15,054 nucleotides of DNA from a candidate division WOR-3 bacterium (lineage in GTDB: Bacteria; Hydrothermota; UBA3072): the NCBI GenBank assembly GCA_039804165.1, contig JBDRZZ010000033.1, positions 1-15,054 of the forward strand. The letters run 5' to 3'. A program made the translations under genes and the position numbers. Positions within the stretch are counted from its first letter, which is position 1. Each line of letters starts with the position of its first letter. Below, piece after piece: positions 1-15,054 of this stretch. The notes beneath the pieces are model-generated. The model was not told the origin of the DNA, made no database searches, and was given only the letters and a program-made list of their open reading frames with translations.

Positions 1-3000
1 CCTAAAATAGAGTCTCTAACCTCTTTATCCCCTACTCTAATGATATTCCAATCAGTTGGGTCCAAACCTATTCCATATTCGAGGACATATTCCTTAAAAT
101 GGGAATCCTTCGCAGTTCCAATTATTGTGATTTCGTCACTCACCATTGTAGAATCAAGAGGTGATATTATCATCGCAAGAGGCGGCGTATTATCCAGTTC
201 ATAATACCTGGAATTAAACGACTCAAGATTTAAAACATTATCCCGAGCACGATAATCAACTTTATAACTCCCATCTTCGCCAGTAATCGTGAACATAACG
301 CTATCTCCTTCCATTGTCGCTGTTAGCTGTGAGCTGCCAGCTGAAAGCTCTGTAATTATGTATTCCACTTCCTTCACTCCTGAGGCAACATCACTTGATA
401 TTGGGTCTATAGCAGTTAATATAAGAGGAGTCCTGGAAGTTATTAATGTTCTACCTAAGCTGTCAGCTGGAAGCTCAAAACTCGGCTCCCCAGAAATAAG
501 CTTAGAAATCGGTGGAGTATTATCAACAGCAAAGTAAAAAGATTTCATTTCCTCTTCATTCCCTAAATTATCAATGCTCCTATAATAAAGAATATGCATT
601 CCTTCGCCAACCTTAGAAAAATCAAACGTCACTTCCTTATCGTATGAAACCCATCCAAGATCATCAATCTGATAATCAGAACTCTTCACCCCAGAACCCT
701 CTCCATCTGTAACAAGAAGAGTAATTGGTGTTAAAGAAGTCAAATAAATTAATCCAAGAGAATCACCACCTAAATAATGAGGCTCTCCAATATCCAAACT
801 CGTAACAGGAGCAGTGTTATCAAGATAAAAAGTTGTATCTTTTACATCCTCTACATTATTAACATTATCAATCGAACGATAGTAAATCTTATGTAAGCCA
901 TCCAAATCTATAACACTAAATCCCGAATCATAATCCTTAAATGGCTCATTATCAATATAATATTCAATCCTATTTAAACCAGAAGAAACTCCGTTTATTT
1001 CCGGATCTAAAGAAATTATCTCTACTTTTGTCTCCGAATTAATAAAAATTGGTGAACCAGTGATTGAATAATAAGGCTCACCAACCTTAAGAGTGCTAAA
1101 AGGCACAGTATTATCAAGCTTTAAAGAATCCTCTTTTATCTTCTCCGCATTTTCAACGTGGTCTTTTCCATAATACTCAATTTTATAAACACCATCCTCA
1201 CCAGAAATAGAAAACTCCGCCATATTTCTTTCAACCTCTTCCCACGACCCTTCATTTATCCTATAATAAATCTCCCAAATCCCAGAAGCAACACCCAAAG
1301 AGATAGGATCAAAAGAGGATATAACTATAGGAGTTTTGGAACTAATGAATAAAGAATCAAATTGAGGCTCTCCTAAAGTTCTCTTACTAATTGGAGGAGT
1401 ATTATCAACCCTTATCTCTTTTATCTTAACAACTTCTCTATTCCCGGCCCTATCAATAGAATAATACTCAACAAAATGAATCCCTTCGCCTTCAACTTTG
1501 AATTCAATGTGGTCACCGGCAGGCGGATAGCGGTTAGCAATCCATATCCCTCCATCTATCCTGTAATACAAGCTATCAACTCCAGAGATGTCATCAGTTG
1601 CCTCAAAACTTAAGGGGGTAGCAGAGGTGATGTATTGCGGTTCGCCAGAAGCGGCAAGCGGATAGCGGGGGAGGCCGATGTGCAGGGTGGTAATAGGTGG
1701 CTCACAATCAAAAGCAACAACAGTATCCTTTGGAGATTCGGCATTACCGAGATTATCCACGGAGTAATAAGAAATCACATATCTATAATGTGGTGGAGTG
1801 TATGGGATATTAAAACTACCAAGAGCTTCTGTCCATGGTTGTAAAACATCTCCCGAAATAGTAGAAACAGCATAGAAAAAACTCGCAATCCCGCATGTAT
1901 CAAGAGCCTCAATCCAAATAGGAGTCTCTGGTGAAATGTAAAGAATCCCATTAAACAACTTTTTCGGCTCCCCAAAAACAAGATAAGACAGTGGTGGAGT
2001 ATTATCCATCGTCAATTTTCTGGATTTTATTTCTTCTCTATTTCCTAATTTATCAACCGAATAATACTCAATTATATGAGTTCCTTCTTCAACCAAATTA
2101 AATTCTACACCAGTGTAGACATTCCACGTATTATCATCTATACGGTAATAAGTTGTATCCACACCACACCCTACATCGTCCGTTTTCAGAGAGAGCGCGG
2201 TCTTGGAGGAGATGTAAAGCTGTGAGCTATCAGCTGGCTCGTAGCTAGGGGTTCCGGGGATGAGGGTGGTAACCGGTGGTGTATTATCCACAAATAATTC
2301 CGTTGACTTGACTTCTTCTCTATTCCCGGCTCTATCTACCGAATAGTACTCAATAACATGGATTCCTTCGTCTCTTACTTTAAACTCTCCACCAGCATAT
2401 ACGTTCCACAAATTATCGTCAATACGATAATATGTGGAATCTACTCCCGATGTTACATTATTTTTCTCTACATCCTCTCCAGTTATTGAGAGGGGAGTTG
2501 TAGAGGTAATGTAAAGCGGAGAGCCCTCAACAAGTAGATAGTGAGGTGGACCAATGTGCAGAGTGGTTATCGGTTCCGTATTATCGATTTTAAGCCTTAC
2601 TTCAACTGGATTTAAATCACCTGTTGAAGTATTCCAGTTGTTTCCTCCCTTATCCTCAGCTCTTATTGTTAGAATATATTCTCCGTCTTCAACGTTTTCG
2701 CTCTCCCATGAGCCTTCATATACTCCGTTAATCGAATCTCCTTCAACCCTTATAATCTCATTATATGATAGACCGTCTATTCTGTATTCAACCTTTTTAA
2801 CCCCACTGACATCATCCATAACCCTCGCCTTTACTTCCACGTTCTTCGAATAATATTCATCTTCAACAGGAGATATTGTTTCCGTTATAAGAGGTGCAGT
2901 AACATCCAGTATTCTTATATTATCTATCCCTACCCCTATCTTTTCACCCCTTGCCTCCACAACAAATGAAACAAGATAATCCTTTGTAGCATAATACTTC

Positions 3001-6000
3001 CCACTTTCCATCCTTAAAGTGTCCAGGTAAGTTGAATCTATCTTTATTGAAATAGAGGTTTTTACTGTATCTTTTTCTTCTTTTGTGACCGGGTCTATAA
3101 CATTTGTTATTCCGTAGCCAATGATATCTATATTGCCTGTATTCTTCACCCATCTTGCGACATCGAAATACTCCCCCCACTCGATGCTTTCCTGAATTAC
3201 ATTTATTCCTCCCATAAGAACAACAGATTCTGATAAAGTAATCCAGAGAGAGTCTAGAGAAAGAATAGAACCATCAGCGTTATTTATAAGAATACCCTTT
3301 ATTTTGTATTCACCAGGAACTCTTGATTCTGTATTCCAGAAATCCTTTCTATTTACAATTTCATCCAGCGAAAGTCCGAATAAATGTGAATACCTTTTCA
3401 GAGTATCATTATCAGGTGAAATAACGATAATTTTAAGGGTCACTTCATTGAATAGACAATTCGGAGAATTGTTTTTCGCAATTGAATTTATCTCAACATT
3501 CTCATAGGATTTGTAGGATGATTTATTTGTAAATAAAGAAAGACTTGTGGAAATTTCAGGAATTATTTCGAAATCATCTTCGTCTTTAGCTCTGAGCCTT
3601 TCCCCTTCATTCGCTTCTCCAAGAACAGTATAAGTTCCCCAGAAGGTTCTCTGGGTATTCCAGTAAATTATAGTATCTTTTATCGCATGTGGTTCTAAAG
3701 TTATATTAAATGTCGAAATTAACTCATCTTTCTCTTTGACCTTTAAATTAACCATTAAATCTTTAGTGCTTTCTCCATTATTCTCTATTCTTGTTATTAC
3801 TCTAACACTATCATAAGCGCCATATTCTTCCTTATCAGTTGTAACTGAGAGAATAATAGGTGAAGGACCAATAATTATGGTTTTACTCATTGTGTTATTG
3901 TCTTCAGATAATTCTTCTATTAAGTTAGAAGGGTCGGCATATAATTCTATTTCGTGAGTGCCGGACCATCCATAAGTATCCCATTCTATTTCTACAGGAA
4001 CAGTCTCTCCGGTTTTAAGGCTATCATTGATAATCTCACTTCCTATTAGGCTTCCATCCGAATAGAAGTTGACCCTGAAATTAGAAATAGAAATACCTGA
4101 GTTCTCGACAACACCTGTTATTCTTACTATATCTCCTTCCTTTGGTTCTGGGGGCAAGAACTCTATGTCTCTTATCCCTAAATCAGGTAAACTCGGGAGT
4201 GTTATCTCCACAGTGGTCATCAAACGGTTATTGTTCTCATTTGATTCTTTTACACTATCTTCAGCGTCAACCCACGCCCAGATGGTATTAGTGCCGGGAT
4301 AACCTTTCGACCACCATTTGATCTCTATCGAAGTATTCTCTCCCGGATTTAAAGCCTGAACAGAACCCTCATCAATAAGTTCTCCATTCTCAGGCATTCT
4401 AAGGAAGAACTTTATCTTATTCTCCTTAGCAGGAAGTGAACCTTGATTTAGAATATCTGCTCCTACCTGTATTGTGTCTCCTTCTATAGCACTCTTGGGG
4501 AAAGGTGTTAAACTTGTTATAAGCAAGTCAGGATAAGAAACAATTATAATTCTGCGTTGAGTAACAAATTCATTCCCTGCCTTATCATAAGTCTTAAGCC
4601 TCAAAGTATAAATTCCTGCTGGAAATCCAGTAATATCAAGAGAACCGAGAACGCCATCAATAATTACTATTACCCCTTCCGAGATTAAATCCCAATTTAC
4701 TGGATTCTCGCCTTTTCCGTATTCAAGAACGAAATGCTCAAAATTAATAGCTTTTCCTTCCCAGTTGGAATCTGTAACAGTACCTATTATATTTAAAACA
4801 GAAATATCTGTAGTGATAGTGTCCCATTCGGAAGGATAGAGAATTATCCCTTTAGGTGGTATATTATCTATCTCAACAGTATCTTTTACCGAAAAACCAT
4901 GATTACTCTCTATTATATACGGATATATCCCACTCCCAATGAACCTTCCATCCCAGCTTTCCTTGTGAAAACCACTCTTCCTATTAAAAGGACCAAGGGT
5001 AGTTATATTGTTTCCAAAAATATCCAAAATATAAATGGTTATATCTGAATTCCCAGAAAGTACATACCTAATATACGTTGTATCTTTAATCCCAGGGCTT
5101 GCTTCTGGAGAAAATGGATCAGGAAATGCTCCTTCTGAAGAAAGATTAAATTCAACAATATCAACCGAAGCCCAATCAATATCGCTCATTCTCTTTGTAT
5201 CTTCAACTTTAAGACCTATTTTCCCTTTAAATGGTTTATTCCATATCCATTCACCCTTCTTTCCAAAGAAGTCATCAAAATCTCCATCACCATCAATTTC
5301 CCACTTATACGAGAGGATAGAATCGCCTACCAGAGTATCTGGGTCATAAGAAAAAGAACCATCAAGTAAGACTGGAGAATTTATAAATCCTTCATAAGGA
5401 CCTCCTGCATTCGCACGAGGAGGATGATTCCCAAGAGTCACAAAAACTATACACACATCAATGTCTGATTTTGGAGGAACGTTATCATCCCACACTCTAA
5501 GTGTAACATAGTATTTTCCTGTATCAGCCCACATATATGTTGCCTCGACACCTGTTGAGTCGAAAATACCATCATTATTAAAGTCCCATTCGTATTTCAC
5601 TATGGTTCTTGCAGTATCTTTGTGATAGGACCCAGAACCATTGAAATGAACAATATCTCTTGGTGCAACAATCTGGTCAGGTCCTGCGTCTGCTACAGGC
5701 GGTTTACCTATCACGAACGGAGTTAAAATAAGAGTTGCCCAAGCTGTGGAGAGCACCTCATTTGAATAGGTACTCCGAGGATGGGACCCATCTTTCCTTT
5801 GCGCTGAAAGTAAATAATCTGAATATTCTTCATACCAATTATGCCCTCCAATATATTCAATCGGTGGGTTTGCAATCCTACATCCTTTCATCACTGTATA
5901 CATTGCGTAGTAATTACCAAAGTTACCATTTTCCCCAGTTTTATTCCAATTTTTATCAAGATAATCTATAGCTTTTTTAATACATATCGTATCAGATGAG

Positions 6001-9000
6001 AGCCCACAGTATGAATATCCACAAATTCCTGCACCTGTTCTTGCTATATTTCCGTTATCTGGCCCAGTATATCCAAATCCGCCGTCTTCAAGTTGGGAAT
6101 ATTCGAGCCAGACCATTAATTCATCCTTCACCCAAGGCGGAGCATAAATTCCCCATTCTCTTTCTGCAGATTCAAGAGCAAGAACTGGCCATTGGGTTAC
6201 GGAATTGTCTGCTTCCTTATTAGGAGAATACCTCCAACCCCCTCTGTACCTTCCACTTGCGGAATCAGTTTGCCCAAATGCAAGATAATCCACAGCATCT
6301 ACGATTAACTCTCGCCAGGTGACTTCACTTTCATTAGGTCCATAAGGACCGGCAATATCCTCCGGGTTATGAGCTCCAATAAATCCCATCATTGCAATTG
6401 GGTGTTGGTAACCCCAGTCTATATTACAAATATTTAATCCTAAACCATCCCGATCAGAATCAGGATTTCCCCTATATTGTTCAGAAATAGCTTCATACTT
6501 CATCCCTTTAAGAATCCAATCTTCTGCCTTTTTCAAATATTCAGCATATATTTCTTTATCGAAATCTCCATTAGATGTATACCCACTATTCGCAAAAGCA
6601 AGTATTGCAATACCAGTAGGTCCAACACTATCATAATCCCCATATCTCCAATAGCCTTCTTTATCTTGAGACAAGTATAAATATCTAAGCCCATCCTCCA
6701 CTGCTGCCCCAATTTTCGTTTCCTTTGTTTCGGGTAGGACATGGATTACAGTTGTATCACTATCCCAATTCCCTTCCTCATCTTTTATTGTAAGAACTGC
6801 CTTATAATCTTTCCAAACACCTGTATAAGTATGCTTTTTGAAAATGAATTTAGAGTTACTTACCAAACCTTCCGCAATAGGAGAACCGTCTCCAAAATCC
6901 CAAGTGTAAAATAGTGTGTCAGAATAAAAAGGTTTAAAAAGAAGTGATTTCTGAGAAGGAGGAAATTTAGAATAAACTGCAGCATTTTCTCCATTTTCAT
7001 TTATTCCTACTATAGCTGTAAAAGGTCCTTTAAGACCATTATAATTAAATCTAATATTCCCATTCTCATATATAACTGCCTGAAAATTATTAGCATCTTC
7101 CCTATCAAGAGTATTATAAGAAACTCCTAACCAAGTAATAACTACTTTCTTATAAGTAGAATCCAAAACCTCTTTGTAAAAAACCTTGCCATTTTTGGGA
7201 CTCTTGTTATATTTTGCCCAAAGGGGAGCAACTGCCCATTTCGCTCTATCGGAAGGGAAAGAATCCCATACATATATCAAATTCTCATTCCCAACTAAAA
7301 AATCAAGAACACCATTTGATACTAAATCAAATCTTGTAAATGTAGTATCAAAAAGCGAAAATTTAAATGGCAACGTTACTGTCTTTAACCAATACTTTTC
7401 CTCACTATTTACTGCATAATTAAGAAATTTCCCATAATCTCCTTCCAAATAAAATCTCTCCTTTTTTATAGAATACCTTATTGGCTCATATAGAATTGAA
7501 AGCCCCTTATAGGGGGAACTCACATACTTCGTAAAAGTTATTCCATCCCCATAATTTACCCCAATATCAAATTTATAGTCGCTGTATTTTTCAAAATCTT
7601 TACAATTCATCATTATCCTTCCTGAAGAATAAAATACTATCTGGAAAGTATAAAGGTCCTGTTCTTTAGGAACATTATCTGAATTTGTAGCATACGCAGT
7701 GGTTACAACAAAAATAGTATCTTTATCTCCCTTCTTTTCAAATTTGTATATCCCCCCTCCTTTCCTATAAGTTTTCATCCCGTAATACTGAAGCACAGGA
7801 TGACAGATATAACCTCCATAACTAAGGTGAAAATTTGGTATTTCAGGAAGACCATCATACCAATTCTTATTAACAATTGAATTAAAGTAAAAGAAACCAT
7901 TAGTTACAACGTTAACTGTATCCCAGTTCCTATCATAGAAATCAAATTTAAAAGGTAATCCAAGTTTCGCCAAGCCTTTCTCGTAATTCCACTTTGAGAT
8001 TTCAACATAATCTCCATAAGCAATCCATCTGAATTCTCTATCAATAAAACTATAAGTAGAACTATTTGGTTTAAAAGTGATTGTTAAACCATCCGTAATA
8101 GGATAAGTCTTAAAATCTACCTTCACTCCATTTATTCCATCCCCTTTGTTAAGACCAACACGGGGGATCAAAGTCCCCGGTTGTGATGTGAACTTGTAAT
8201 TAAATAGTATTTCTCCTGACTCTTTTATCACAAGTTGAAAAGTATATTTTTCAGGCTTAACTCTTGATAAACTATCCCATGTAATCACACATTTTTTACC
8301 ATTTATATCCTCAGTATCATTTATCCAAACTGGTCTTTTGTAACTTACACTGAGATTACACCCAAAAGGAGAAATTACATAATCGGGATGGTCGTGCGGG
8401 AAATCTTCCTGTGGATAACTTTTATGATGCCACCAACTTGAATTGTTACCAGCCCAGAAGTCCACCCAACCATTTGTGCTTATATAAAGTGTATCAAAAG
8501 TGCTATCGTAAAAAGGAAATGAAAATTCTAATTTATGTTTTGTATAATTGTCGTCTCCATAAAGACCAGAGCTTTTGCCATAATCGCTTTCCCATTCAAA
8601 AGATTTTCTATACATAGTGTAAGAAACTCCTTTTGGGAACTCTATAGACCTCTCGCTTATTGGATGAACTGGATAAAGAGTCCCATCAACACCATCTCCT
8701 TTATTAATCCCTACAAGAGGCGAATCCGAAGAAAGAGTATTGATGCTGTAATAACTAAATCTTACCTCGTTCTTCTCAGTTAGAACAAGTTGGAAAGTGT
8801 ATGAGTTTTCAGGATGACCTTTTAAATGAGCATTTACCCAGCTTATTATAAAAACATCCCAGCTATTTTTCTTATCACTTTCATCTGAGACTTTTGTTGA
8901 AAGGTAGTAAACTCCTCCATCATCTTCAAAATAAAGGTCTTCAAGATAAGGAGCTAAAACATATTTGAAAGAAACTGAAGGGAAAGAATCACAGGAACTC

Positions 9001-12000
9001 AAAGTATAATCATTTTCATCCGAAAAACCCACATAACCATTTGTGCTTATATATACTTCGTTGAAAGTGGAACCATAAAGTTCAAAAGGAAATGGAAGGG
9101 AAACTTTTACCCATTCATCATCTCCTGAAAGACCTGTATTTCTTCCAAAATCCATCTCCCAGTGAGGTTCAACAATTTCCTTATCATAATCCCTTTCCAA
9201 CAAAGAAAGAGAAGTTTTACTTGTAGGTTTGCCCTCATAAGTCCTTCCTTCAACCCCATCCCCAAGATTTACACCGATTGTAGCATTTATTGTTGTATCT
9301 ATCTTTTCATAATTAAATCTTATATTTCCGTATTTATCAAGAGAAATCTGAAATATAAATTCCACATCTGGATTGTTTTTCGGGGAAACATTTACCCAGC
9401 TTATAATGAATTTATCACCAGAATACCAATAGTAAATTCCACTACTATCATTCATTACCAAATCGGTCCAGAAAGGTGCAATTACATATTTATCCTCAGT
9501 ATTTGGGAAACCGGAAGCATTGCTTTTACTATAATTATTCTCCGAAGAAAAACCAATAAAGCCATTTGTGCTAATATAAACTTCTAGAAATGTAGAATCA
9601 TAAAACTCAAATTCAAAAGGAAGATTCACTAAAGTATAATTATCATCTCCAGATAAACCAGTATTAGTTCCAAAATTTACCTCCCATTGCTCCTCTTTTT
9701 CTATCAGGAAGTAATTCTTCTCTCTCCAATTAGGATCATACACATTGCCCCAAACATATATTTCCCTACCTGGCCAAGTCGGATACTCGGGCATCACATT
9801 CACCCTTGGTGGATAACTACCAACAATAGGTCCTTCATTACTACTCAGTGGTCCTATCTCTTCTTTCGCAAGGTTCCCTTTTATATCTTTCGCTTCAAAT
9901 CTATAGTTAGCTTCAAGAGTTAAAGGAAGTTTTGTTAAATAAGAATATTCCTTTCCATCTCTATAATCATTATCGGAAAGGTCCACAGGGAACATTGAGA
10001 AAGAGCCTTCTTTCATTCCTCCGACTACATTATTGTAAAATCCATCTCCATCCAAATCAACCCAAACTTTTGGATAACCATCCATAGGAGGGTCATTATC
10101 AATATCTGTATAAACAATTCTATATTCAAAAATCTCATTTGTATCTCCAGTATTAGGATTAACACCATCGGTTATAAAACCATTTTCTTTTGACCAAGAA
10201 ATAATAGGTAATCTATTTCCAATCCATATTCCTCTTCCGGCGGTATTATTTTCTTTACTTGTTTCCATAATCAAATTATCAGGGTCTATCACAACAAAGA
10301 TACTGTGAGGGCCACCTCTATTAGAGCTCCAAGTAATCCTTGCCTTTCCAGAACCAAATGGAAAAATTTTAGATATAACATTACTACCAATCAGGGTTCC
10401 TCCTCCATTAGGATTCCCATCATAAAAATCAACTTTAACCAAATTTGCTGGGATATCTGAGATATTATGAATCTCCGCATTTATTTCCACAGATTCACTA
10501 ATCTCTGGATTTATTGGAAAAAAAGTAATATCAAGTGAATCAAGAGTAAGTTCTGTTATCTCAGGAAAGGTGACATATACTTCTTTATAAGCTTTATTGT
10601 TACGGTCGTTTTTTTCTACGATTTCATCATATGGGTCAGCCTTTGCATATATTCTTATTAACCCAAAAGTGTCAGGAACCCAATTTAATTTAACTTGAGC
10701 ACTGTCTTTTCCCATTAACTTCAATATATGAGAAAAACCAATAATATTCTCTTCAGTTGCTTCCTTCTTGTAAAAATTGACTCTTATTGTCTCATTAATC
10801 GATTTACTACCCCTATTATGAACCCAAACTAAAATATTTATTGTGTCTAAGAGGGTAGGATATTCAGGAAAAAGCACTATATCCTTACTTTTAATCTCAA
10901 GGTCCGGTTCAGAAGGCTTAACTTTAATACTTGCATGAGCTATATTATTTAATTTGGTAATCTCTTCTATCCGATTCTCCGGGTCTATTACAACCCATAT
11001 GTCATTATAACCCTCTTTGCCGATTGTCCCCCAATTTATATCAACTTTTTTGGAACCCCCAGGAAGAACAAAGTTTATAAAAACAGACCCAATTTGTTTT
11101 GCTCCTAAATTTGGATTCCCTTCATAAAAACTAACAGTTATTCCCTGTGCGCCTCCCTCTCCAATATTACGAATTACGGCTGAAATTTTTACCGAATCCC
11201 CCTCTTCAGGTGAAGTGGGAGTAAATGTGATATCGTTATTATTTACGGCAAGGTCTGGCGGAAATCCTGTAACATTGAATGAACGGGTTGCCGTGTTATT
11301 TGTCTCGTTCGATTCCAAAATTATATTATCAGGGTCTGCCAAAACATATAAAGTATGATTTCCCTGGGGAAGCATTGTCAAAAATCTCCCACTTACAAAT
11401 TGCCCACCGCCTATAACAGGAAAATCAAAATTTACAAGGAGGAGCCCTCCATTTTGAGGGTCTCCATCGTAAACCGCAGTTTTTACATTCTTCACACTCA
11501 TCTCTCCAGTATTATAAACAGAAAAATTAACCTGAATAGTATCTTTCTCTGTAGGTCTTATAGGTTCTATCTTTATATCCTGGGGATAAACGACTAAATC
11601 AGCTGGGGTAAATACATTTAAATGATAAACATATTCATTATCTCCCTCATTCCCTTCCCTTATTTTGTTCTCCCAATCCACAGTTCCTTTAATCTCATAT
11701 CTTCCAGAAGGCAAATTATAAGAGAAATCTACTATTGTTGAATCACCGGGAAGAAGACTATCGATTACTCCTTCCCAGAGAAGAAGAGTATCAAGAATAA
11801 ATTTAACCTTAAACCCATCCGCCTTTTCCATCCCAATGTTCTTAATAACCGCAGAAAGAGTAAAAACCTGCCCATCACCTATAGTGGAAGGATCTGTCCA
11901 GGCAGAAGAAATCACAAGATTTGGACTCATTGTAGAAAGTGCCAAAATCGCAAGAGCAGTCTCATAAGCATTATTGTTCCAACTCCCCTCACTATCCTGA

Positions 12001-12758
12001 GCAGAAAGGAGGAAGTTTTTTGTTTTTTCTATTGCTGTGAGCCGTGAGCTGTCAGCTGTAACCGGATGTTGCAGGGCCATCAAGGAAAGGGCGCTCTCAT
12101 ATATTGAAGTTGTATCCTTCCCAAAACTACCATTTGTGTTCTGTTGACTAAGAAGCCAGGAGATTCCATTTCTGATTTGGGTGCTTAAATCATATATACC
12201 ATGGAATCTTTCCAGAGAAATGAGAGTTAATGCGGTAATATAAACAGATGAACTATCATTTATATCACACCAATAATTGTCTTTTTGTTTGTTTACGATG
12301 TAATAAATAATTCTCCCAATCCTATCATAATCAGAATAATTAGTCGCATTTAAAGCACGAAGAAGAAGCGAAACATCAAGAGGATAACTCCCATAGAAAC
12401 GCAAAGCACCAAAACCTCCATCCTGATTCTGGAAAGTTAGAATAGTATCAATTAGTCCCGTCGTATCCGGGAAAAAAGGAGTTACAACTTCCAGATACCT
12501 TGAAATGTGGTCTAAGGAAGGAAGAGAAAAAGACATGAACCTCTTAAGACCAATATCAAAAATCGAATCTTCTCCATTCAGAATAAGAGCTCTTAAGACC
12601 TCTGATGTGGAAAGAAAATTATTGTATTCTTCTCCCCATGTGGAATCTGGATTTTGATTGAGTTTTAACCACTCAATCCCCTTGTTAATGGCATCATCAA
12701 CTGGAGATGCGATTAAAGTTATACAAATGAATATACAGATTAAAATCTTTCTAAACAT
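1..12758 (-). CDS. Giant multidomain secreted/cell-surface protein (3' end beyond window)
   Basis: A single reading frame runs from ATG at 12758-12756 to base 1 without a stop: 4,252 complete codons plus two bases, so the protein is larger than 4,252 residues and its C-terminus is missing. The start is fixed by an AGGAGG ribosome site 4 bases upstream and by the signal peptide MFRKILICIFICITLIAS that follows. Order of domains: alpha/alpha toroid, CARDB x5, linker domain, five nidogen-like modules, PKD-like, second toroid, PKD x2, FlgD-Ig, Ig-like, CARDB or CARDB-like x4, Ig-like segments, eight DNTPP-linked Ig-like units, then a partial Ig-like domain. Everything recognised is a beta-sandwich or toroid used for extracellular architecture and binding; no catalytic motif was seen. 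The gene starts 16 bases after the upstream gene stops, so the two are probably co-transcribed. The role is inferred to be adhesion, surface layer or matrix. Few cysteines and short in-frame palindromic elements are further features. The ORF is near certain; the function is not. Confidence 0.95.
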   Translation of the reverse strand, partial: MFRKILICIFICITLIASPVDDAINKGIEWLKLNQNPDSTWGEEYNNFLSTSEVLRALILNGEDSIFDIGLKRFMSFSLPSLDHISRYLEVVTPFFPDTTGLIDTILTFQNQDGGFGALRFYGSYPLDVSLLLRALNATNYSDYDRIGRIIYYIVNKQKDNYWCDINDSSSVYITALTLISLERFHGIYDLSTQIRNGISWLLSQQNTNGSFGKDTTSIYESALSLMALQHPVTADSSRLTAIEKTKNFLLSAQDSEGSWNNNAYETALAILALSTMSPNLVISSAWTDPSTIGDGQVFTLSAVIKNIGMEKADGFKVKFILDTLLLWEGVIDSLLPGDSTIVDFSYNLPSGRYEIKGTVDWENKIREGNEGDNEYVYHLNVFTPADLVVYPQDIKIEPIRPTEKDTIQVNFSVYNTGEMSVKNVKTAVYDGDPQNGGLLLVNFDFPVIGGGQFVSGRFLTMLPQGNHTLYVLADPDNIILESNETNNTATRSFNVTGFPPDLAVNNNDITFTPTSPEEGDSVKISAVIRNIGEGGAQGITVSFYEGNPNLGAKQIGSVFINFVLPGGSKKVDINWGTIGKEGYNDIWVVIDPENRIEEITKLNNIAHASIKVKPSEPDLEIKSKDIVLFPEYPTLLDTINILVWVHNRGSKSINETIRVNFYKKEATEENIIGFSHILKLMGKDSAQVKLNWVPDTFGLIRIYAKADPYDEIVEKNDRNNKAYKEVYVTFPEITELTLDSLDITFFPINPEISESVEINAEIHNISDIPANLVKVDFYDGNPNGGGTLIGSNVISKIFPFGSGKARITWSSNRGGPHSIFVVIDPDNLIMETSKENNTAGRGIWIGNRLPIISWSKENGFITDGVNPNTGDTNEIFEYRIVYTDIDNDPPMDGYPKVWVDLDGDGFYNNVVGGMKEGSFSMFPVDLSDNDYRDGKEYSYLTKLPLTLEANYRFEAKDIKGNLAKEEIGPLSSNEGPIVGSYPPRVNVMPEYPTWPGREIYVWGNVYDPNWREKNYFLIEKEEQWEVNFGTNTGLSGDDNYTLVNLPFEFEFYDSTFLEVYISTNGFIGFSSENNYSKSNASGFPNTEDKYVIAPFWTDLVMNDSSGIYYWYSGDKFIISWVNVSPKNNPDVEFIFQISLDKYGNIRFNYEKIDTTINATIGVNLGDGVEGRTYEGKPTSKTSLSLLERDYDKEIVEPHWEMDFGRNTGLSGDDEWVKVSLPFPFELYGSTFNEVYISTNGYVGFSDENDYTLSSCDSFPSVSFKYVLAPYLEDLYFEDDGGVYYLSTKVSDESDKKNSWDVFIISWVNAHLKGHPENSYTFQLVLTEKNEVRFSYYSINTLSSDSPLVGINKGDGVDGTLYPVHPISERSIEFPKGVSYTMYRKSFEWESDYGKSSGLYGDDNYTKHKLEFSFPFYDSTFDTLYISTNGWVDFWAGNNSSWWHHKSYPQEDFPHDHPDYVISPFGCNLSVSYKRPVWINDTEDINGKKCVITWDSLSRVKPEKYTFQLVIKESGEILFNYKFTSQPGTLIPRVGLNKGDGINGVKVDFKTYPITDGLTITFKPNSSTYSFIDREFRWIAYGDYVEISKWNYEKGLAKLGLPFKFDFYDRNWDTVNVVTNGFFYFNSIVNKNWYDGLPEIPNFHLSYGGYICHPVLQYYGMKTYRKGGGIYKFEKKGDKDTIFVVTTAYATNSDNVPKEQDLYTFQIVFYSSGRIMMNCKDFEKYSDYKFDIGVNYGDGITFTKYVSSPYKGLSILYEPIRYSIKKERFYLEGDYGKFLNYAVNSEEKYWLKTVTLPFKFSLFDTTFTRFDLVSNGVLDFLVGNENLIYVWDSFPSDRAKWAVAPLWAKYNKSPKNGKVFYKEVLDSTYKKVVITWLGVSYNTLDREDANNFQAVIYENGNIRFNYNGLKGPFTAIVGINENGENAAVYSKFPPSQKSLLFKPFYSDTLFYTWDFGDGSPIAEGLVSNSKFIFKKHTYTGVWKDYKAVLTIKDEEGNWDSDTTVIHVLPETKETKIGAAVEDGLRYLYLSQDKEGYWRYGDYDSVGPTGIAILAFANSGYTSNGDFDKEIYAEYLKKAEDWILKGMKYEAISEQYRGNPDSDRDGLGLNICNIDWGYQHPIAMMGFIGAHNPEDIAGPYGPNESEVTWRELIVDAVDYLAFGQTDSASGRYRGGWRYSPNKEADNSVTQWPVLALESAEREWGIYAPPWVKDELMVWLEYSQLEDGGFGYTGPDNGNIARTGAGICGYSYCGLSSDTICIKKAIDYLDKNWNKTGENGNFGNYYAMYTVMKGCRIANPPIEYIGGHNWYEEYSDYLLSAQRKDGSHPRSTYSNEVLSTAWATLILTPFVIGKPPVADAGPDQIVAPRDIVHFNGSGSYHKDTARTIVKYEWDFNNDGIFDSTGVEATYMWADTGKYYVTLRVWDDNVPPKSDIDVCIVFVTLGNHPPRANAGGPYEGFINSPVLLDGSFSYDPDTLVGDSILSYKWEIDGDGDFDDFFGKKGEWIWNKPFKGKIGLKVEDTKRMSDIDWASVDIVEFNLSSEGAFPDPFSPEASPGIKDTTYIRYVLSGNSDITIYILDIFGNNITTLGPFNRKSGFHKESWDGRFIGSGIYPYIIESNHGFSVKDTVEIDNIPPKGIILYPSEWDTITTDISVLNIIGTVTDSNWEGKAINFEHFVLEYGKGENPVNWDLISEGVIVIIDGVLGSLDITGFPAGIYTLRLKTYDKAGNEFVTQRRIIIVSYPDLLITSLTPFPKSAIEGDTIQVGADILNQGSLPAKENKIKFFLRMPENGELIDEGSVQALNPGENTSIEIKWWSKGYPGTNTIWAWVDAEDSVKESNENNNRLMTTVEITLPSLPDLGIRDIEFLPPEPKEGDIVRITGVVENSGISISNFRVNFYSDGSLIGSEIINDSLKTGETVPVEIEWDTYGWSGTHEIELYADPSNLIEELSEDNNTMSKTIIIGPSPIILSVTTDKEEYGAYDSVRVITRIENNGESTKDLMVNLKVKEKDELISTFNITLEPHAIKDTIIYWNTQRTFWGTYTVLGEANEGERLRAKDEDDFEIIPEISTSLSLFTNKSSYKSYENVEINSIAKNNSPNCLFNEVTLKIIVISPDNDTLKRYSHLFGLSLDEIVNRKDFWNTESRVPGEYKIKGILINNADGSILSLDSLWITLSESVVLMGGINVIQESIEWGEYFDVARWVKNTGNIDIIGYGITNVIDPVTKEEKDTVKTSISIKIDSTYLDTLRMESGKYYATKDYLVSFVVEARGEKIGVGIDNIRILDVTAPLITETISPVEDEYYSKNVEVKARVMDDVSGVKKVEYRIDGLSYNEIIRVEGDSINGVYEGSWESENVEDGEYILTIRAEDKGGNNWNTSTGDLNPVEVRLKIDNTEPITTLHIGPPHYLLVEGSPLYITSTTPLSITGEDVEKNNVTSGVDSTYYRIDDNLWNVYAGGEFKVRDEGIHVIEYYSVDRAGNREEVKSTELFVDNTPPVTTLIPGTPSYEPADSSQLYISSKTALSLKTDDVGCGVDTTYYRIDDNTWNVYTGVEFNLVEEGTHIIEYYSVDKLGNREEIKSRKLTMDNTPPLSYLVFGEPKKLFNGILYISPETPIWIEALDTCGIASFFYAVSTISGDVLQPWTEALGSFNIPYTPPHYRYVISYYSVDNLGNAESPKDTVVAFDCEPPITTLHIGLPRYPLAASGEPQYITSATPLSFEATDDISGVDSLYYRIDGGIWIANRYPPAGDHIEFKVEGEGIHFVEYYSIDRAGNREVVKIKEIRVDNTPPISKRTLGEPQFDSLFISSKTPIVISSFDPISLGVASGIWEIYYRINEGSWEEVERNMAEFSISGEDGVYKIEYYGKDHVENAEKIKEDSLKLDNTVPFSTLKVGEPYYSITGSPIFINSETKVEIISLDPEINGVSSGLNRIEYYIDNEPFKDYDSGFSVIDLDGLHKIYYRSIDNVNNVEDVKDTTFYLDNTAPVTSLDIGEPHYLGGDSLGLIYLTSLTPITLLVTDGEGSGVKSSDYQIDDLGWVSYDKEVTFDFSKVGEGMHILYYRSIDNLGNEEEMKSFYFAVDNTPPISKLISGEPSFELPADSLGRTLITSRTPLILTAIDPISSDVASGVKEVEYIITELSAGSSQLTATMEGDSVMFTITGEDGSYKVDYRARDNVLNLESFNSRYYELDNTPPLAMIISPLDSTMVSDEITIIGTAKDSHFKEYVLEYGIGLDPTDWNIIRVGDKEVRDSIL
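3..194 (-). other. Partial Ig-like domain (second GTxxDxxF..LEYGxG copy) at window edge
   Basis: Residues 4189-4252 read DNTPPLAMIISPLDSTM, IIGTAKDSHFKEYVLEYGIG and DPTDWNII, matching residues about 2634-2690 in layout and motif. The domain is cut by the window edge, so at least tens of residues of it, and probably a further C-terminal domain, lie outside. Confidence 0.65.
320..350 (-). repeat. In-frame palindromic element, family A copy 1
   Basis: The minus strand carries CAGCTGGCAGCTCACAGCT (325-343), read as SAGSSQLT. It sits in the loop after the 'YYRID..W' strand of Ig-like unit 8 (loop 2). Compared with unit 5 the segment is about six residues longer and the usual Trp is lost. Confidence 0.7.
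456..476 (-). repeat. In-frame palindromic element, family A copy 2 (short)
   Basis: The minus strand carries GAGCTTCCAGCTGACAGCTT, which keeps the left 12 bases of the family core and then diverges. It is read as ELPADSL in the loop after 'GEPSF' (loop 1) of Ig-like unit 8. The matching loop in unit 5 is about five or six residues shorter. Confidence 0.6.
1517..1533 (-). repeat. In-frame GC-rich element, family B copy 1
   Basis: The minus strand carries CCGCTATCCGCCTGCCG, read as RYPPA, in loop 2 of Ig-like unit 4 (after DGGIWIAN). It matches copy 2 at 16 of 17 bases in the same codon phase. Confidence 0.6.
1652..1668 (-). repeat. In-frame GC-rich element, family B copy 2
   Basis: The minus strand carries CCGCTATCCGCTTGCCG, read as RYPLA, in loop 1 of Ig-like unit 4 (after HIGLP). 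The flanks (about 1640-1690) are also unusually GC-rich for this gene. Confidence 0.6.
2218..2246 (-). repeat. In-frame palindromic element, family A copy 3
   Basis: The minus strand carries CAGCTGATAGCTCACAGCT (2218-2236), preceded by a further AGCT. It is read as PADSSQL in loop 1 of Ig-like unit 2. The core differs from copy 1 at two adjacent positions. The surrounding unit is locally richer in G+C than the rest of the array. Confidence 0.7.
2586..2900 (-). other. Ig-like domain preceding the DNTPP array
   Basis: Residues 3287-3391 contain LITETISPVEDEYYSKNVEV, DDVSGVKKVEYRIDG and EDGEYILTIRAEDKGGNN. This is the common 'P..g..v.g.v.v.a...D..SGV..VeY.iDG...' bacterial Ig-like (Big) type. 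It is similar enough to the units that follow to be their more distant relative. Confidence 0.6.
2901..3227 (-). other. Unassigned beta-rich segment of the giant protein
   Basis: Residues 3178-3286 (VVLMGGINVIQESIEWGEY through GVGIDNIRILDV) form an extended beta-rich segment. The closing phrase IGVGIDNIRILDVTAP looks like the edge of a jelly-roll carbohydrate-binding-like fold (such folds often end 'vDNI.i'). I cannot assign it firmly. Confidence 0.4.
3228..4532 (-). repeat. CARDB-like Ig domains (block 2: two clear, two diverged)
   Basis: Units begin near residues 2743, 2858, 2967 and 3070. The first two are clear CARDB: PDLLITSLTPFPKSAIEGD ending VKESNENNN, and PDLGIRDIEFLPPEPKEGD ending DPSNLIEELSEDNNTMS. 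The last two open with a different signature (SVTTDKEEYGAYDSVRV and SLFTNKSSYKSYENVEI), closer to macroglobulin-type Ig domains that start 'l.t.k..Y..ge.v'. They are probably stalk or adhesive domains, as in block 1. Confidence 0.7.
4539..4859 (-). other. Ig-like domain of the GTxxDxxF..LEYGxG type
   Basis: Residues 2634-2740 contain IIGTVTDSNWEG, FVLEYGKGENPVNWDLI and an IYTLRLKTYDKAGNE closing strand. The same type reappears at residues 4189-4252 at the window edge. I recognise the pattern from surface proteins of uncultured bacteria but cannot give a family name. Confidence 0.6.
4866..5138 (-). other. FlgD-type Ig-like domain in an internal position
   Basis: Residues 2541-2631 read PDPFSPEASPG, then a YIRYVLSGNSDITIYILDIFGN strand pair, then a SWDGRFIGSGIYPYIIES end. 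This is the FlgD Ig-like pattern (NPF.P ... v.I.d..G ... WDG....G.Y.Y). In secreted FCB-group proteins this domain normally ends the protein or forms part of a C-terminal sorting region. Here more than 1,600 residues follow it. Confidence 0.75.
5148..5702 (-). other. Two consecutive PKD domains
   Basis: The first (residues about 2353-2441) opens with PPVADAGPDQIV, has NGSGSYHKD and YEWDFNNDGIFD, and closes with DTGKYYVTLRVWDD. The second (about 2445-2537) opens with HPPRANAGGPYEGF, has LDGSFSYDPD and KWEIDGDGDFDD, and is less regular at the end. These are standard PKD landmarks. Both contain acidic loops that could bind calcium. Confidence 0.9.
5709..6722 (-). other. Alpha/alpha-toroid domain 2
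   Basis: Residues about 2013-2350 repeat the prenyltransferase/cyclase-like hairpin pattern: LYLSQDKEGYWRYG (about 2027-2040), GPTGIAILAFANSG, FGQTDSASGRYRGGWRYSP, VTQWPVLALESAE, YSQLEDGGFGYTGP (about 2220-2233) and LLSAQRKDGSHP (about 2316-2327) with LSTAWATLIL. A D-x-D-x-D-G loop (NPDSDRDGLGLN, about 2098-2109) suggests bound calcium. Neither the cyclase acid motif nor a thioester motif is present. It is longer than toroid 1 and only distantly similar to it in sequence, so it looks like an old duplication or a separately acquired module. Confidence 0.75.
6732..6926 (-). other. PKD-like domain
   Basis: Residues 1945-2009 contain YTWDFGDGSP followed by KHTYTGVWKDYKAVLTIKDE, the hallmark WDFGDG and H-x-Y-x-x-x-G-x-Y elements of a PKD beta-sandwich. 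It lies directly between the nidogen-like array and the second toroid and is probably a rigid spacer. Confidence 0.75.
6927..9692 (-). repeat. Array of five nidogen-like 'STNG' beta modules
   Basis: Five tandem units of about 175-190 residues: residues 1023-1196, 1197-1384, 1385-1572, 1573-1763 and 1764-1944. Shared elements in order are a W-x-x-[DN]-[FY]-G opening (WEVNFGTNTGLSGDD, WEMDFGRNTGLSGDD, WESDYGKSSGLYGDD), LPF.F.FYDSTF, VYISTNGFIGF, an APFW.DL-type segment, a SWVNV strand, FQ..L...G.IRFNY, and GVN.GDG near the end. This resembles the NIDO-type module (FPFYG...V.VSSNG..F...APFWADV). Units 1-3 are close to each other. Units 4 and 5 have drifted (VTNGFFYF, LVSNGVLDF) and lost the WE..FG opening. 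At DNA level the VYISTNG segments near 8474, 9041 and 9566 remain nearly identical. The family name is an inference; the repeat structure is seen directly. Confidence 0.8.
9693..10223 (-). other. Linker domain with EF-hand-like calcium loop
   Basis: Residues 846-1022 read as a beta-rich domain opening with LPIISWSKENGFITDG and containing the acidic loop DLDGDGFYNN (about 901-910), which fits a D-x-D-x-D-G calcium-binding loop, and a closing NYRFEAKDIKGN strand. Similar 'sW.....G...DGv.P..G...' segments occur in archaeal and bacterial surface proteins, but I cannot name the family. A Pro-rich stretch (SYPPRVNVMPEYPTWPG) joins it to the next array. Confidence 0.5.
10224..11924 (-). repeat. Five tandem CARDB-like Ig domains (block 1)
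   Basis: Five units of about 105-115 residues begin near residues 279, 386, 500, 618 and 734. Each opens with PDL or a similar start plus a 'P..P..GD.V.....I.N.G' stretch (for example PEEGDSVKISAVIRNIG) and closes with a 'VDPDN.I.E....NN.A' stretch (DPDNIILESNETNNTA, DPENRIEEITKLNN, DPYDEIVEKNDRNN, DPDNLIMETSKENNTA). These are the signatures of CARDB, the cell-adhesion-related domain of bacteria and archaea. Unit 1 is the most diverged. They probably act as an extended spacer or adhesive stalk after the toroid. Confidence 0.85.
11934..12701 (-). other. Alpha/alpha-toroid domain 1 (prenyltransferase/squalene-cyclase-like repeats)
   Basis: Residues about 20-275 consist of helical hairpins, each ending in a QW-like turn: QNQDGGFG (about 110-117), QQNTNGSFG (about 205-213) and QDSEGSW (about 254-260), with helices such as TSEVLRALIL and YETALAILAL between them. 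This is the pattern of the six-hairpin toroid shared by squalene/oxidosqualene cyclases, prenyltransferase beta subunits and the thioester domains of alpha-2-macroglobulins. The acidic DxDD motif of cyclases and the CxEQ thioester motif are both absent, so it probably acts as a scaffold or binding domain. One palindromic element (family A) lies in an inter-helix loop at 12034-12061. Confidence 0.75.
12034..12061 (-). repeat. In-frame palindromic element, family A copy 4
   Basis: The minus strand carries CAGCTGACAGCTCACGGCT (12040-12058), read as TADSSRL. It lies in toroid 1 between the helix ending SLMALQHP and the next helix AIEKTKNFLL. It is about 9.8 kb from copy 3 and in an unrelated domain, so common descent of the Ig-like units cannot explain it. 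Confidence 0.7.
12702..12758 (-). other. Signal peptide of the giant protein
   Basis: Residues 1-19 have a basic start (FRK), a hydrophobic core (ILICIFICITLIA) and a polar exit (SPVDD), typical of Sec export. There is no lipobox: no Cys follows an L-[AS]-[GA] triplet at the end of the core, so a lipoprotein is unlikely. Cleavage is probably around residues 17-20. Confidence 0.8.
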
Positions 12759-13966: not shown

Positions 13967-15054
13967 TCATTTATCTTTCTCTTCATTTCCTTTAAGTCTT
14001 AATTTTGAATCCCCCACATATGTAAAACGAGCCCAAACTGCCCCAATACATCTATTCCTACAATCCTTTTTAATCTGTTCCTTCGCTAAATTTAAAGATT
14101 CCTTCAAGTTCATTCCTACCGCAAAACCAGCATACATAATAGCTGCGCTCCTCTCATTTTCAAAATCATGGAGCCCACTCCATCCCACTGAAGCTCTCGC
14201 GGGAAAAGCACTTGCAACTCCTATACTATAGCAAGCATCAATATGCACAAGACCACATGGAGGTATACCCAAATCTGGAATTTCATCTTTCCGTAGACTA
14301 ACCTTATGCCCAGTCTTATAGTTCTTGTATATTAATAATTCATCAGGACGACCATCACTGTTATAATAGAAAACTTCTAAACTTATATTTTTACTTTTAA
14401 GGGCCTCTATTAAACATTCCTTACTTGTAGGAGTAAAGGGCTGAATAACATTATAACCTATTGCTGAAAGATAATGTGTAATATAAACTATCTGTATCAT
14501 CATTTCCTCTCCAAATTGATGCCCTTGATTATATCCCAATATAGCAGCTTTCTTAACAAAGGTCTTTTTTGCTCTAACAGTTACGCCTACCCCAGCTAAT
14601 TTATACTCTGTTGCAGTACTCCCCCCGTTAAATCCACCAGAAATCAAATACGAACCTGAACCTGTAGTTGGGTCCGTCAGTATATATCCAACTCCTCGCC
14701 AGTCCTCAAGAGTAACTGAAGATTCCGATACCTTGGCAATAAGCCCTCTATTCACAGCATTCATTATATCTACTTTAGCATCCTCTGGAATATTTAAGTT
14801 TGGAAGTATATTATCAATATTTGATTTATCTATATCATAAATCGGAATCCCATTAAGCGAGGCTATCTGAAGAGCTTTAACTGCTGAAACCGAAGGTAAA
14901 TCCATCCAATGCTCAAATATAAAATGCTCAAGATATGAACTCTCATACCCAGTTATTTTTGTATACTTAATTTCCTTCGTTTTATCTCCATAAATAGAAA
15001 AAACTTTCTCAAGATTTCTATCAGCATCAATAAACATTCTACTTAAAGAAACTT
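13967..15054 (-). CDS. C-terminal part of a large protein with a caspase-like domain (5' end beyond window)
   Basis: The frame is open to the right edge. The first Met (15037-15035) has no ribosome site before it and the codons upstream (V-S-L-S-R) contain no stop, so the gene almost certainly begins outside the window. At least 361 residues are visible, ending in TGA. Two parts can be seen, numbered from that Met. Residues about 28-150 (GYESSYLEHFIFEHWMDLPSV, NGIPIYDIDKSNIDNILP, VGYILTDPTTGSGSYLISGG) resemble a module I recall near the ends of very large bacterial transglutaminase-like or RHS-like proteins. Residues about 161-345 fit a caspase-type fold: KKAAILGYN, an IGYNVIQP strand, VFYYNSDG, VHIDACYS, and a late helix MNLKESLNLAKEQ. 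The Cys (269) is present, but Asp228 stands where SGHG would supply the His. Its role, perhaps processing or sensing, is inferred. Confidence 0.85.
   Translation of the reverse strand, partial: VSLSRMFIDADRNLEKVFSIYGDKTKEIKYTKITGYESSYLEHFIFEHWMDLPSVSAVKALQIASLNGIPIYDIDKSNIDNILPNLNIPEDAKVDIMNAVNRGLIAKVSESSVTLEDWRGVGYILTDPTTGSGSYLISGGFNGGSTATEYKLAGVGVTVRAKKTFVKKAAILGYNQGHQFGEEMMIQIVYITHYLSAIGYNVIQPFTPTSKECLIEALKSKNISLEVFYYNSDGRPDELLIYKNYKTGHKVSLRKDEIPDLGIPPCGLVHIDACYSIGVASAFPARASVGWSGLHDFENERSAAIMYAGFAVGMNLKESLNLAKEQIKKDCRNRCIGAVWARFTYVGDSKLRLKGNEEKDK
14003..14557 (-). other. Caspase-like (clan CD) domain, possibly inactive
   Basis: Landmarks in order: beta-1 KKAAILGYN (161-169), a helix and strand ITHYLSAIGYNVIQPFTPTS that matches 'L..lGf.V.....pt', beta-3 LEVFYYNSDG (220-229) where caspase-like enzymes have yySGHG, beta-4 LVHIDACYS (263-271) with the nucleophile-type Cys269, and a C-terminal helix region with MYAGFAVGMNLKESLNLA. 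The Cys is in the classic DACxS context. The catalytic His position is Asp228. Other His residues (His173, His244, His265) are not in the expected place. Confidence 0.55.
14588..14956 (-). other. Conserved module ahead of the caspase-like domain
   Basis: Residues about 28-150 from the first Met: ESSYLEHFIFEHW, then SAVKALQIASLNGIPIYDID, then a helix pair (EDAKVDIMNAVNRG), then WRGVGYILTDPTTGSGSYL. The 'EsSyLEH..wE', 'aLq.An..gIP.y.i...Ni...LP.L' and 'GvGYi..DP.TG.G.Y.isGG' pattern is one I associate with the C-terminal parts of giant secreted bacterial proteins. No family name is offered. Confidence 0.5.

What the first reader, a model, noticed from the sequence alone, without database searches (positions are those of the whole stretch)
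14003..14557. Caspase-like domain with the Cys but not the His: pseudo-protease or altered catalysis
The order KKAAILGYN, IGYNVIQP, VFYYNSDG, VHIDACYS and a late helix fits clan CD, with Cys269 in DACxS. The dyad His position, expected in SGHG, is Asp228 in NSDG. This could be a catalytically dead sensor or assembly domain, or the His could come from elsewhere (His244 in TGHK). Such a domain at the end of a giant secreted protein, next to another giant secreted protein, hints at a processing or maturation relationship.
Basis: partly seen in the sequence, partly recalled or inferred. Interest (0 to 1): 0.6.

Follow-up and report, generated by a model that had tools for sequence, protein, structure and literature searches.

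The report
Caspase-like effector domain missing its histidine
At the end of a secreted protein of an uncultured WOR-3 bacterium sits a caspase-fold domain that has kept the catalytic cysteine but lost the catalytic histidine present in all 13 relatives; it looks like one allele of a swappable, toxin-like tip encoded next to its own small partner gene, probably a dead or badly weakened protease.

Summary
The minus-strand ORF 13967-15052 (cut at its N-terminus by the contig end) ends in a clan CD (caspase/gingipain/CHAT) domain. The AlphaFold2 model (pLDDT 73, pTM 0.75) matches SAVED-CHAT (Z 18.1), gingipain RgpB (14.6) and caspase-11 (13.4). I found 13 related C-terminal domains on the same upstream module in WOR-3, Nitrospirota-type and other genomes. 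All 13 have His (GHG/GHT) where the window has Asp (NSDG), and all 14 keep the Cys. The window also keeps the Gly after the His position, but the Gly before it is Ser. So this is a real His-to-Asp allele of a His-Cys family.

The domain is the variable tip of a polymorphic, toxin-like protein: a mostly Cys-less transglutaminase domain, a conserved "trailer", then an interchangeable C-terminal domain (caspase-like, NlpC/P60, M15, membrane types). A cognate partner gene follows (here 12775-13911), then the toroid/CARDB giant. Tips and partners co-vary (21 cross-genome pairs against 0.6 expected; none of 5000 permutations reached it). The giant sits beside every kind of tip checked, so a dedicated processing role is unlikely.

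Most likely this is an impaired or dead protease allele. Residual or altered catalysis is not excluded.

The parts
13970..14599 (-). Clan CD (caspase/CHAT/gingipain-like) C-terminal domain, aa 152-361 of the truncated ORF
   Evidence: AF2 model pLDDT 73.3/pTM 0.75; VIA Z 18.1 SAVED-CHAT, 14.6 RgpB, 13.4 caspase-11; profile of 13 relatives 36.3 bits vs best shuffle 6.1
14351..14362 (-). NSDG motif (AAC AGT GAT GGT): Asp codon 14354-14356 at the dyad-His position; preceding Gly is Ser; following Gly kept
   Evidence: 13 of 13 relatives have GHG/GHT here
14225..14239 (-). DACYS motif; nucleophile Cys codon 14231-14233
   Evidence: Cys invariant in 14 of 14
14306..14308 (-).
14519..14521 (-). His178 (QGHQF) in the predicted loop after the first core strand, where clan CD S1-site residues lie; untested alternative base
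   Evidence: loop role from PMC4357240
14600..15052 (-). Conserved 'trailer' module ending in a Gly-rich linker (ISGGFNGG), which in relatives follows a transglutaminase-like domain; gene cut off by the contig end
   Evidence: 37-50% identity to relatives; TG-core upstream in L002, L005, L024, L026
12775..13911 (-). Partner gene (378 aa), predicted cognate immunity/inhibitor-like protein; hydrophobic N-terminus (MQWLVVIFIF), 55 bp downstream of the caspase-like gene with its own AGGAG
   Evidence: position conserved in 77 of 77 cassettes and tip-partner co-variation in the family; this particular partner has no detectable homologue (best E 0.16); spacing and AGGAG
3..12758 (-). Giant secreted alpha/alpha-toroid + CARDB/PKD/Nidogen/Big protein, third gene of the conserved order, runs off the contig
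   Evidence: Pfam SQHop_cyclase_C 8.6e-11, CARDB 4.2e-96; toroid gene also third in L018/L022, L024, L026, L099, L141-L143, L145

Best explanation
The domain is the variable C-terminal effector tip of a polymorphic, toxin-like secreted protein (signal region, inactive transglutaminase-like domain, trailer, tip), followed by a gene for its cognate partner, most likely an immunity or inhibitor protein in the envelope. In relatives the tip is a His-Cys clan CD protease, presumably cutting an envelope protein of a rival or sister cell unless the partner blocks it. In this allele the catalytic His has become Asp and the preceding Gly has become Ser, while the nucleophile Cys and the Gly after the His position (oxyanion-hole Gly in caspases) remain, so it is most likely a dead or strongly weakened protease. 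Shown: fold, His loss, Cys retention, modular swapping, tip-partner co-variation. Inferred: toxin role, partner as immunity, loss of activity.
For: Clan CD fold. His in 13 of 13 relatives and Cys in 14 of 14. Two residues of GHG are changed in the window (two nucleotide changes relative to a GGT CAT GGT-type motif), which speaks against a single base error. The same trailer carries unrelated tips: caspase-like, NlpC/P60, Peptidase_M15_3, second TG, hydrophobic. Tandem orphan cassettes that start inside or just before the trailer (L018, L023, L145, L103). Tip and next gene co-vary: 21 cross-genome pairs with both homologous, 0.6 expected, maximum 6 in 5000 permutations. TG catalytic Cys lost in 11 of 14 TG domains, as described for inactive TG domains of polymorphic toxins (PMC3482391). 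Caspase-like C-terminal domains are a described polymorphic toxin class (PMC3482391).
Against: No killing, secretion or immunity experiment exists. The window's own partner has no recognisable homologue, so the cognate-pair reading here rests on position and on the family. Caspase-1 H237A/K/Q cells still make 9-15% of wild-type IL-1beta (PMC10088814), so loss of His need not mean loss of all activity. The true N-terminus of the window protein is missing, and its TG domain was not seen.
Confidence: 0.66

Rival explanations
1. Altered catalysis: the domain is still an active Cys protease, with Asp233, His178 (loop L1) or His249 doing the job of the lost His, or with no base at all.
For: Cys and the Gly after the His position are kept. 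A DFT/MM study argues that in clan CD the Cys proton goes directly to the substrate and that caspase-1 His mutants keep 9-15% output (PMC10088814). Gln-Cys variants of orthocaspases exist in nature (PMC6426788).
Against: No relative has Asp in this place; His249 and His178 are not shared. The Gly before the His is also lost. The window keeps 13 of 22 conserved columns against 15-21 of 22-24 in relatives, which suggests relaxed constraint.
Confidence: 0.15
2. Functional pseudo-protease: catalysis is lost but the domain is kept as a peptide-binding, decoy or assembly domain, like pseudo-orthocaspases or c-FLIP.
For: Intact ORF and predicted fold despite loss of the dyad. Catalytically dead caspase repeats are noted in polymorphic toxins (PMC3482391); 858 of 9,994 bacterial orthocaspases lack part or all of the dyad (PMC6426788).
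Against: A single allele; no second Asp-Cys member was found among 561 genomes searched with the domain profile, so long-term maintenance cannot be shown.
Confidence: 0.3
3. Decaying allele or assembly artefact: the tip recently lost its His and is drifting, or the sequence is wrong.
For: Contigs of this family break in the trailer, as expected for near-identical copies. Broken relatives exist: L023 has an in-frame stop and a frame change, and the G306 C38 tip ends just after GHG. Fewer conserved columns are kept.
Against: The 361-aa frame is open and the order with the partner and giant genes is intact. Two residues changed in one motif, with no frameshift or stop, is unlike a simple error.
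Confidence: 0.25
4. Processing or maturation protease for the adjacent giant secreted protein.
For: Conserved adjacency; caspase-like domains process some large surface proteins (PMC3482391).
Against: The same giant toroid gene follows modules whose tips are NlpC/P60, M15-like or hydrophobic. The tip co-varies with the small partner. The dyad is broken here.
Confidence: 0.05

Closest known systems
Tox-Caspase domains of polymorphic toxins (Zhang et al. 2012, PMC3482391)
   Same: Caspase-fold domain as the C-terminal-most, swappable domain of a secreted protein, with an adjacent partner gene and orphan cassettes.
   Different: Here without RHS repeats, on a TG-trailer chassis in WOR-3/Nitrospirota-type genomes, with a toroid/CARDB giant in the operon; the window allele lacks the His. 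No Pfam, NCBIfam or PADLOC model matches it.
Inactive N-terminal transglutaminase polymorphic toxins (PMC3482391)
   Same: Transglutaminase-like domain with lost catalytic Cys, followed by variable C-terminal domains.
   Different: The published ones are followed by RHS arrays; here a 145-aa trailer leads directly to the tip.
SAVED-CHAT (PCaspase, PDB 8tl0) and gingipain RgpB (4ief)
   Same: Closest solved folds (VIA Z 18.1, rmsd 3.0 over 181 aa; Z 14.6, rmsd 3.4 over 182 aa).
   Different: 13% sequence identity; those are His-Cys enzymes in unrelated architectures (cyclic-nucleotide defence; secreted protease).
Pseudo-orthocaspases (PMC6426788)
   Same: Bacterial clan CD domains with a substituted dyad, including ones that keep Cys (Gln-Cys).
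   Different: Those are p20 orthocaspases, most often Tyr-Ser; Asp-Cys was not in the passages I read, and they are not tips of polymorphic secreted proteins.

Membership tests
Clan CD (caspase/haemoglobinase fold) | Alpha/beta sandwich with dyad positions at the ends of strands 3 and 4 | tested here: met
   Model and VIA Z 12-18 to several clan CD families over about 175-185 residues; candidate positions follow strands E73-80 and E115-121
Clan CD peptidase | Catalytic Cys | tested here: met
   Cys274, invariant in 14 of 14
Clan CD peptidase | Catalytic His before a conserved Gly | tested here: not met
   Asp233 in NSDG; 13 of 13 relatives have His. Gly after the position is kept
Clan CD peptidase | Proteolytic activity | not testable with these tools
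   Needs an assay
Pfam caspase-like families | Match above the gathering score | tested here: not met
   No Pfam family for the domain; one relative hits Raptor_N below cut-off
Polymorphic toxin systems | One conserved N-terminal module with many unrelated C-terminal domains | tested here: met
Polymorphic toxin systems | Cognate downstream gene co-varying with the C-terminal domain | tested here: met
   21 pairs vs 0.6 expected, 0 of 5000 permutations. For the window pair itself: inconclusive
Polymorphic toxin systems | Orphan cassettes in tandem | tested here: met
   L018, L023, L103, L145; not seen in the window itself
Polymorphic toxin systems | Toxicity neutralised by the immunity protein | not testable with these tools
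   No experiment
Inactive-TG polymorphic toxins | N-terminal TG-like domain with a lost catalytic residue | tested here: inconclusive
   Met in relatives (Cys lost in 11 of 14); the window gene is truncated before this part
RHS toxins | RHS/YD repeats | tested here: inconclusive
   No Pfam RHS match in full-length relatives L024 and L026; the truncated window gene cannot be tested. One divergent relative (L014) has an RHS-like ORF next door
Known anti-phage defence proteins | Match in PADLOC-DB | tested here: not met
   No hit

The most novel reading that the evidence does not exclude
A distinct, RHS-less class of polymorphic toxins (inactive TG, trailer, swappable protease tips, toroid/CARDB giant) whose protease tips are restrained by envelope-anchored inhibitor-type immunity proteins (PepSY/YcdB-like in one subgroup), in which the window carries a natural Asp-Cys clan CD allele kept as a non-cutting binder or as a protease with altered chemistry.
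Probability: 0.3. Interest if true: 0.68.

Novelty: new variant of a known kind. Interest (0 to 1): 0.45.

Why it matters
It places an unannotated protein of an uncultured phylum in a recognisable conflict-type architecture and gives a testable natural case of what clan CD domains do without the dyad His, a residue whose role in caspases is disputed. The wider family (up to 12 trailer copies in one genome) offers many natural protease tips paired with candidate inhibitors that no curated family model in Pfam, NCBIfam or PADLOC recognised here.

Tried and rejected
Single-sequence searches of the protein or domain against Pfam, NCBIfam, PADLOC and PDB sequences gave nothing useful, as did plasmid, phage and viral collections. 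The full-length protein as a pattern query in genome contigs failed; the trailer alignment worked. Pairwise hhalign of the window domain with the first three relatives was not significant; significance came only with 13 relatives. Homology of the window partner to the WOR-3 partners (G070, G096) was tested and not shown. A second AF2 run on trailer plus domain gave a confident trailer (pLDDT 84-96 for aa 61-100) but a poor tip, and Foldseek found no credible match for it; this is not evidence that the trailer fold is new. Direct processing of the giant neighbour was considered and set aside because the neighbour is the same for all tip types checked. A homologous tip reported in a Thermoplasmata MAG (L023) is broken and was only read in pieces.

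Full report
Observation. The minus-strand ORF 13967-15052 contains every motif quoted. From 15052 the key residues are Asp233 (GAT, 14354-14356), Cys274 (TGC, 14231-14233) and His249 in TGHK. The genome belongs to candidate division WOR-3: genomes G070 and G096, listed as the same phylum, are JAJRUZ010000041.1 and QNBE01000115.1, titled WOR-3 (the same contigs by length and match).

Relatives. Sequence searches with the single protein found only its N-terminal part. That part, aa 1-145, which I call the trailer, is conserved (37-50% identity). A trailer profile found the rest of the family in WOR-3, in genome contigs, in 45 of 395 sampled genomes of the phylum of L026 (a Thermodesulfovibrionales MAG) and in 10 of 19 genomes of the phylum of L024. 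One genome (G561) has 12 trailer matches. Behind the trailer the proteins differ: caspase-like, NlpC/P60 (PF00877, 9.9e-6), M15-like (PF08291, 1.5e-7), a second transglutaminase-like domain, or short hydrophobic domains.

The caspase-like tips. Thirteen other tips are caspase-like. All have GHG (one GHT) followed by a Cys motif; the window alone has NSDG. The Cys is invariant. Excluding the window, the profile of the 13 scores the window domain 36.3 bits against 6.1 for the best of 2000 shuffles, and BLASTP links it to the G562 tip at E = 7e-7. Searching 147 WOR-3, 395 L026-phylum and 19 L024-phylum genomes with the 14-sequence profile gave no second Asp allele; the weaker, more distant hits whose alignments I could read also show His before Gly or Ser.

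Fold. The AF2 model of aa 152-361 (7-sequence alignment) has pLDDT 73.3 and pTM 0.75. VIA-align gives Z 18.1 to SAVED-CHAT (rmsd 3.0 over 181 residues), 14.6 to RgpB, 13.4 to caspase-11 and about 13 to legumain; Foldseek agrees. The candidate dyad positions follow the strands 73-80 and 115-121, where clan CD dyads sit (PMC4357240). A 361-aa construct with a thinner alignment for the tip gave a low-confidence tip; I count that as a caveat. No coordinates are returned, so the Cys-His distance was not measured.

Context. Relatives with complete genes start with a signal-like segment and a transglutaminase-like domain (PF01841), whose catalytic Cys position is Phe, Met, Trp, Tyr or Leu in 11 of 14 domains. 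Zhang et al. 2012 (PMC3482391) described inactive N-terminal transglutaminase domains in polymorphic toxins, followed there by RHS repeats, and caspase-like domains both as processing and as C-terminal toxin domains. Here no RHS array separates chassis and tip. Tandem arrays of partial cassettes starting in or just before the trailer occur in L018, L023, L103 and L145, as expected of polymorphic systems.

Partner genes. Directly behind each tip lies another gene, usually membrane-anchored or secreted, with start codons mostly within a few bases of the tip's stop codon; it was never the toroid gene (77 of 77). Pairs of tips from different genomes that are homologous tend to have homologous partners: 21 such pairs against a permutation mean of 0.6, maximum 6 in 5000. 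Permutation ignores genome relatedness beyond excluding same-genome pairs, so the number is not an exact probability. Among caspase-like tips, L026, G375, G326 and G552 share a partner family with weak YcdB/PepSY similarity (DUF4901 2.4e-4, below cut-off); L024, G561 and G562 share another with a nearly identical C-terminal 52 residues. PepSY-type domains are known as peptidase propeptide/inhibitor domains (general knowledge). The window's partner, 12775-13911, has a hydrophobic N-terminus and a ribosome-binding-like AGGAG but no detectable homologue (best E 0.16).

The giant gene. Window 3-12758 encodes an alpha/alpha toroid with CARDB, PKD, Nidogen-like and Big domains. The toroid gene is the next stable element behind the cassette in WOR-3, L024, L026 and other genomes, whatever the tip. 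It is therefore a companion of the system rather than a substrate dedicated to this protease.

Mechanism. I infer that the canonical tips are envelope-directed Cys proteases restrained by the partner. The window tip has lost the His and the preceding Gly but kept Cys and the Gly after the His position. In caspase-1, His mutants keep 9-15% of product formation and a DFT/MM study assigns the His an auxiliary role (PMC10088814), so 'impaired' is safer than 'dead'. Natural bacterial orthocaspases with substituted dyads, including Gln-Cys, are known (PMC6426788). Whether the allele is decaying or maintained cannot be decided from one sequence; it keeps somewhat fewer conserved columns (13 of 22) than the relatives (15-21 of 22-24).

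Verdict. It is a His-to-Asp allele in a new branch of a known kind of system. The broader cassette family is the more interesting discovery; the lost His is a good test case but a single allele.

Noticed in passing
L145, L146 (G561 C82, C98), L103, L109 (G306), L108 (G193): Large tandem arrays of trailer-tip-partner cassettes ending in a toroid gene; G561 has 12 trailer matches. Many tips are short (about 100-140 aa) and hydrophobic with small hydrophobic partners, reminiscent of membrane-acting toxins.
   Followed up: partly
L020 1342-2109 (own genome, contig C46): The partner gene of the second family member in this genome contains two stretches resembling the trailer (profile E 3e-5 and 9e-7), as if the partner mimicked part of its neighbour.
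   Followed up: no
L020 2144-5260: The TG-trailer gene on contig C46 is split into three overlapping frames, and the same N-terminus recurs at the other contig end; either a broken gene or an assembly problem in near-identical copies.
   Followed up: no
L023 1-1013 (QMTB01000155.1): A WOR-3-like cassette in a MAG labelled Thermoplasmata archaeon, broken by an in-frame TAG and a frame change; probably misbinned.
   Followed up: partly
L096 3360-4199 (G306 C38): A caspase-like tip that stops shortly after its GHG motif; a truncated allele.
   Followed up: partly
L024 7117-7806, L141 1189-1950, L143 1051-1773: Partners of one caspase-like subgroup share a 52-aa C-terminus (71-83% identical) that looks pilin-like (GGWIYSSNSGDIRINC) while the rest diverges.
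   Followed up: no
model mbc00288ff148 vs PDB 8rw5/8rot: The anti-sigma factor DdvA (residues 800-991) is among the best fold matches (Z 13.3), suggesting a clan CD-like domain there.
   Followed up: no
L010 (G004 C18): A TG-type relative in the same family of bacteria carries a subtilisin-like domain within the trailer region.
   Followed up: no
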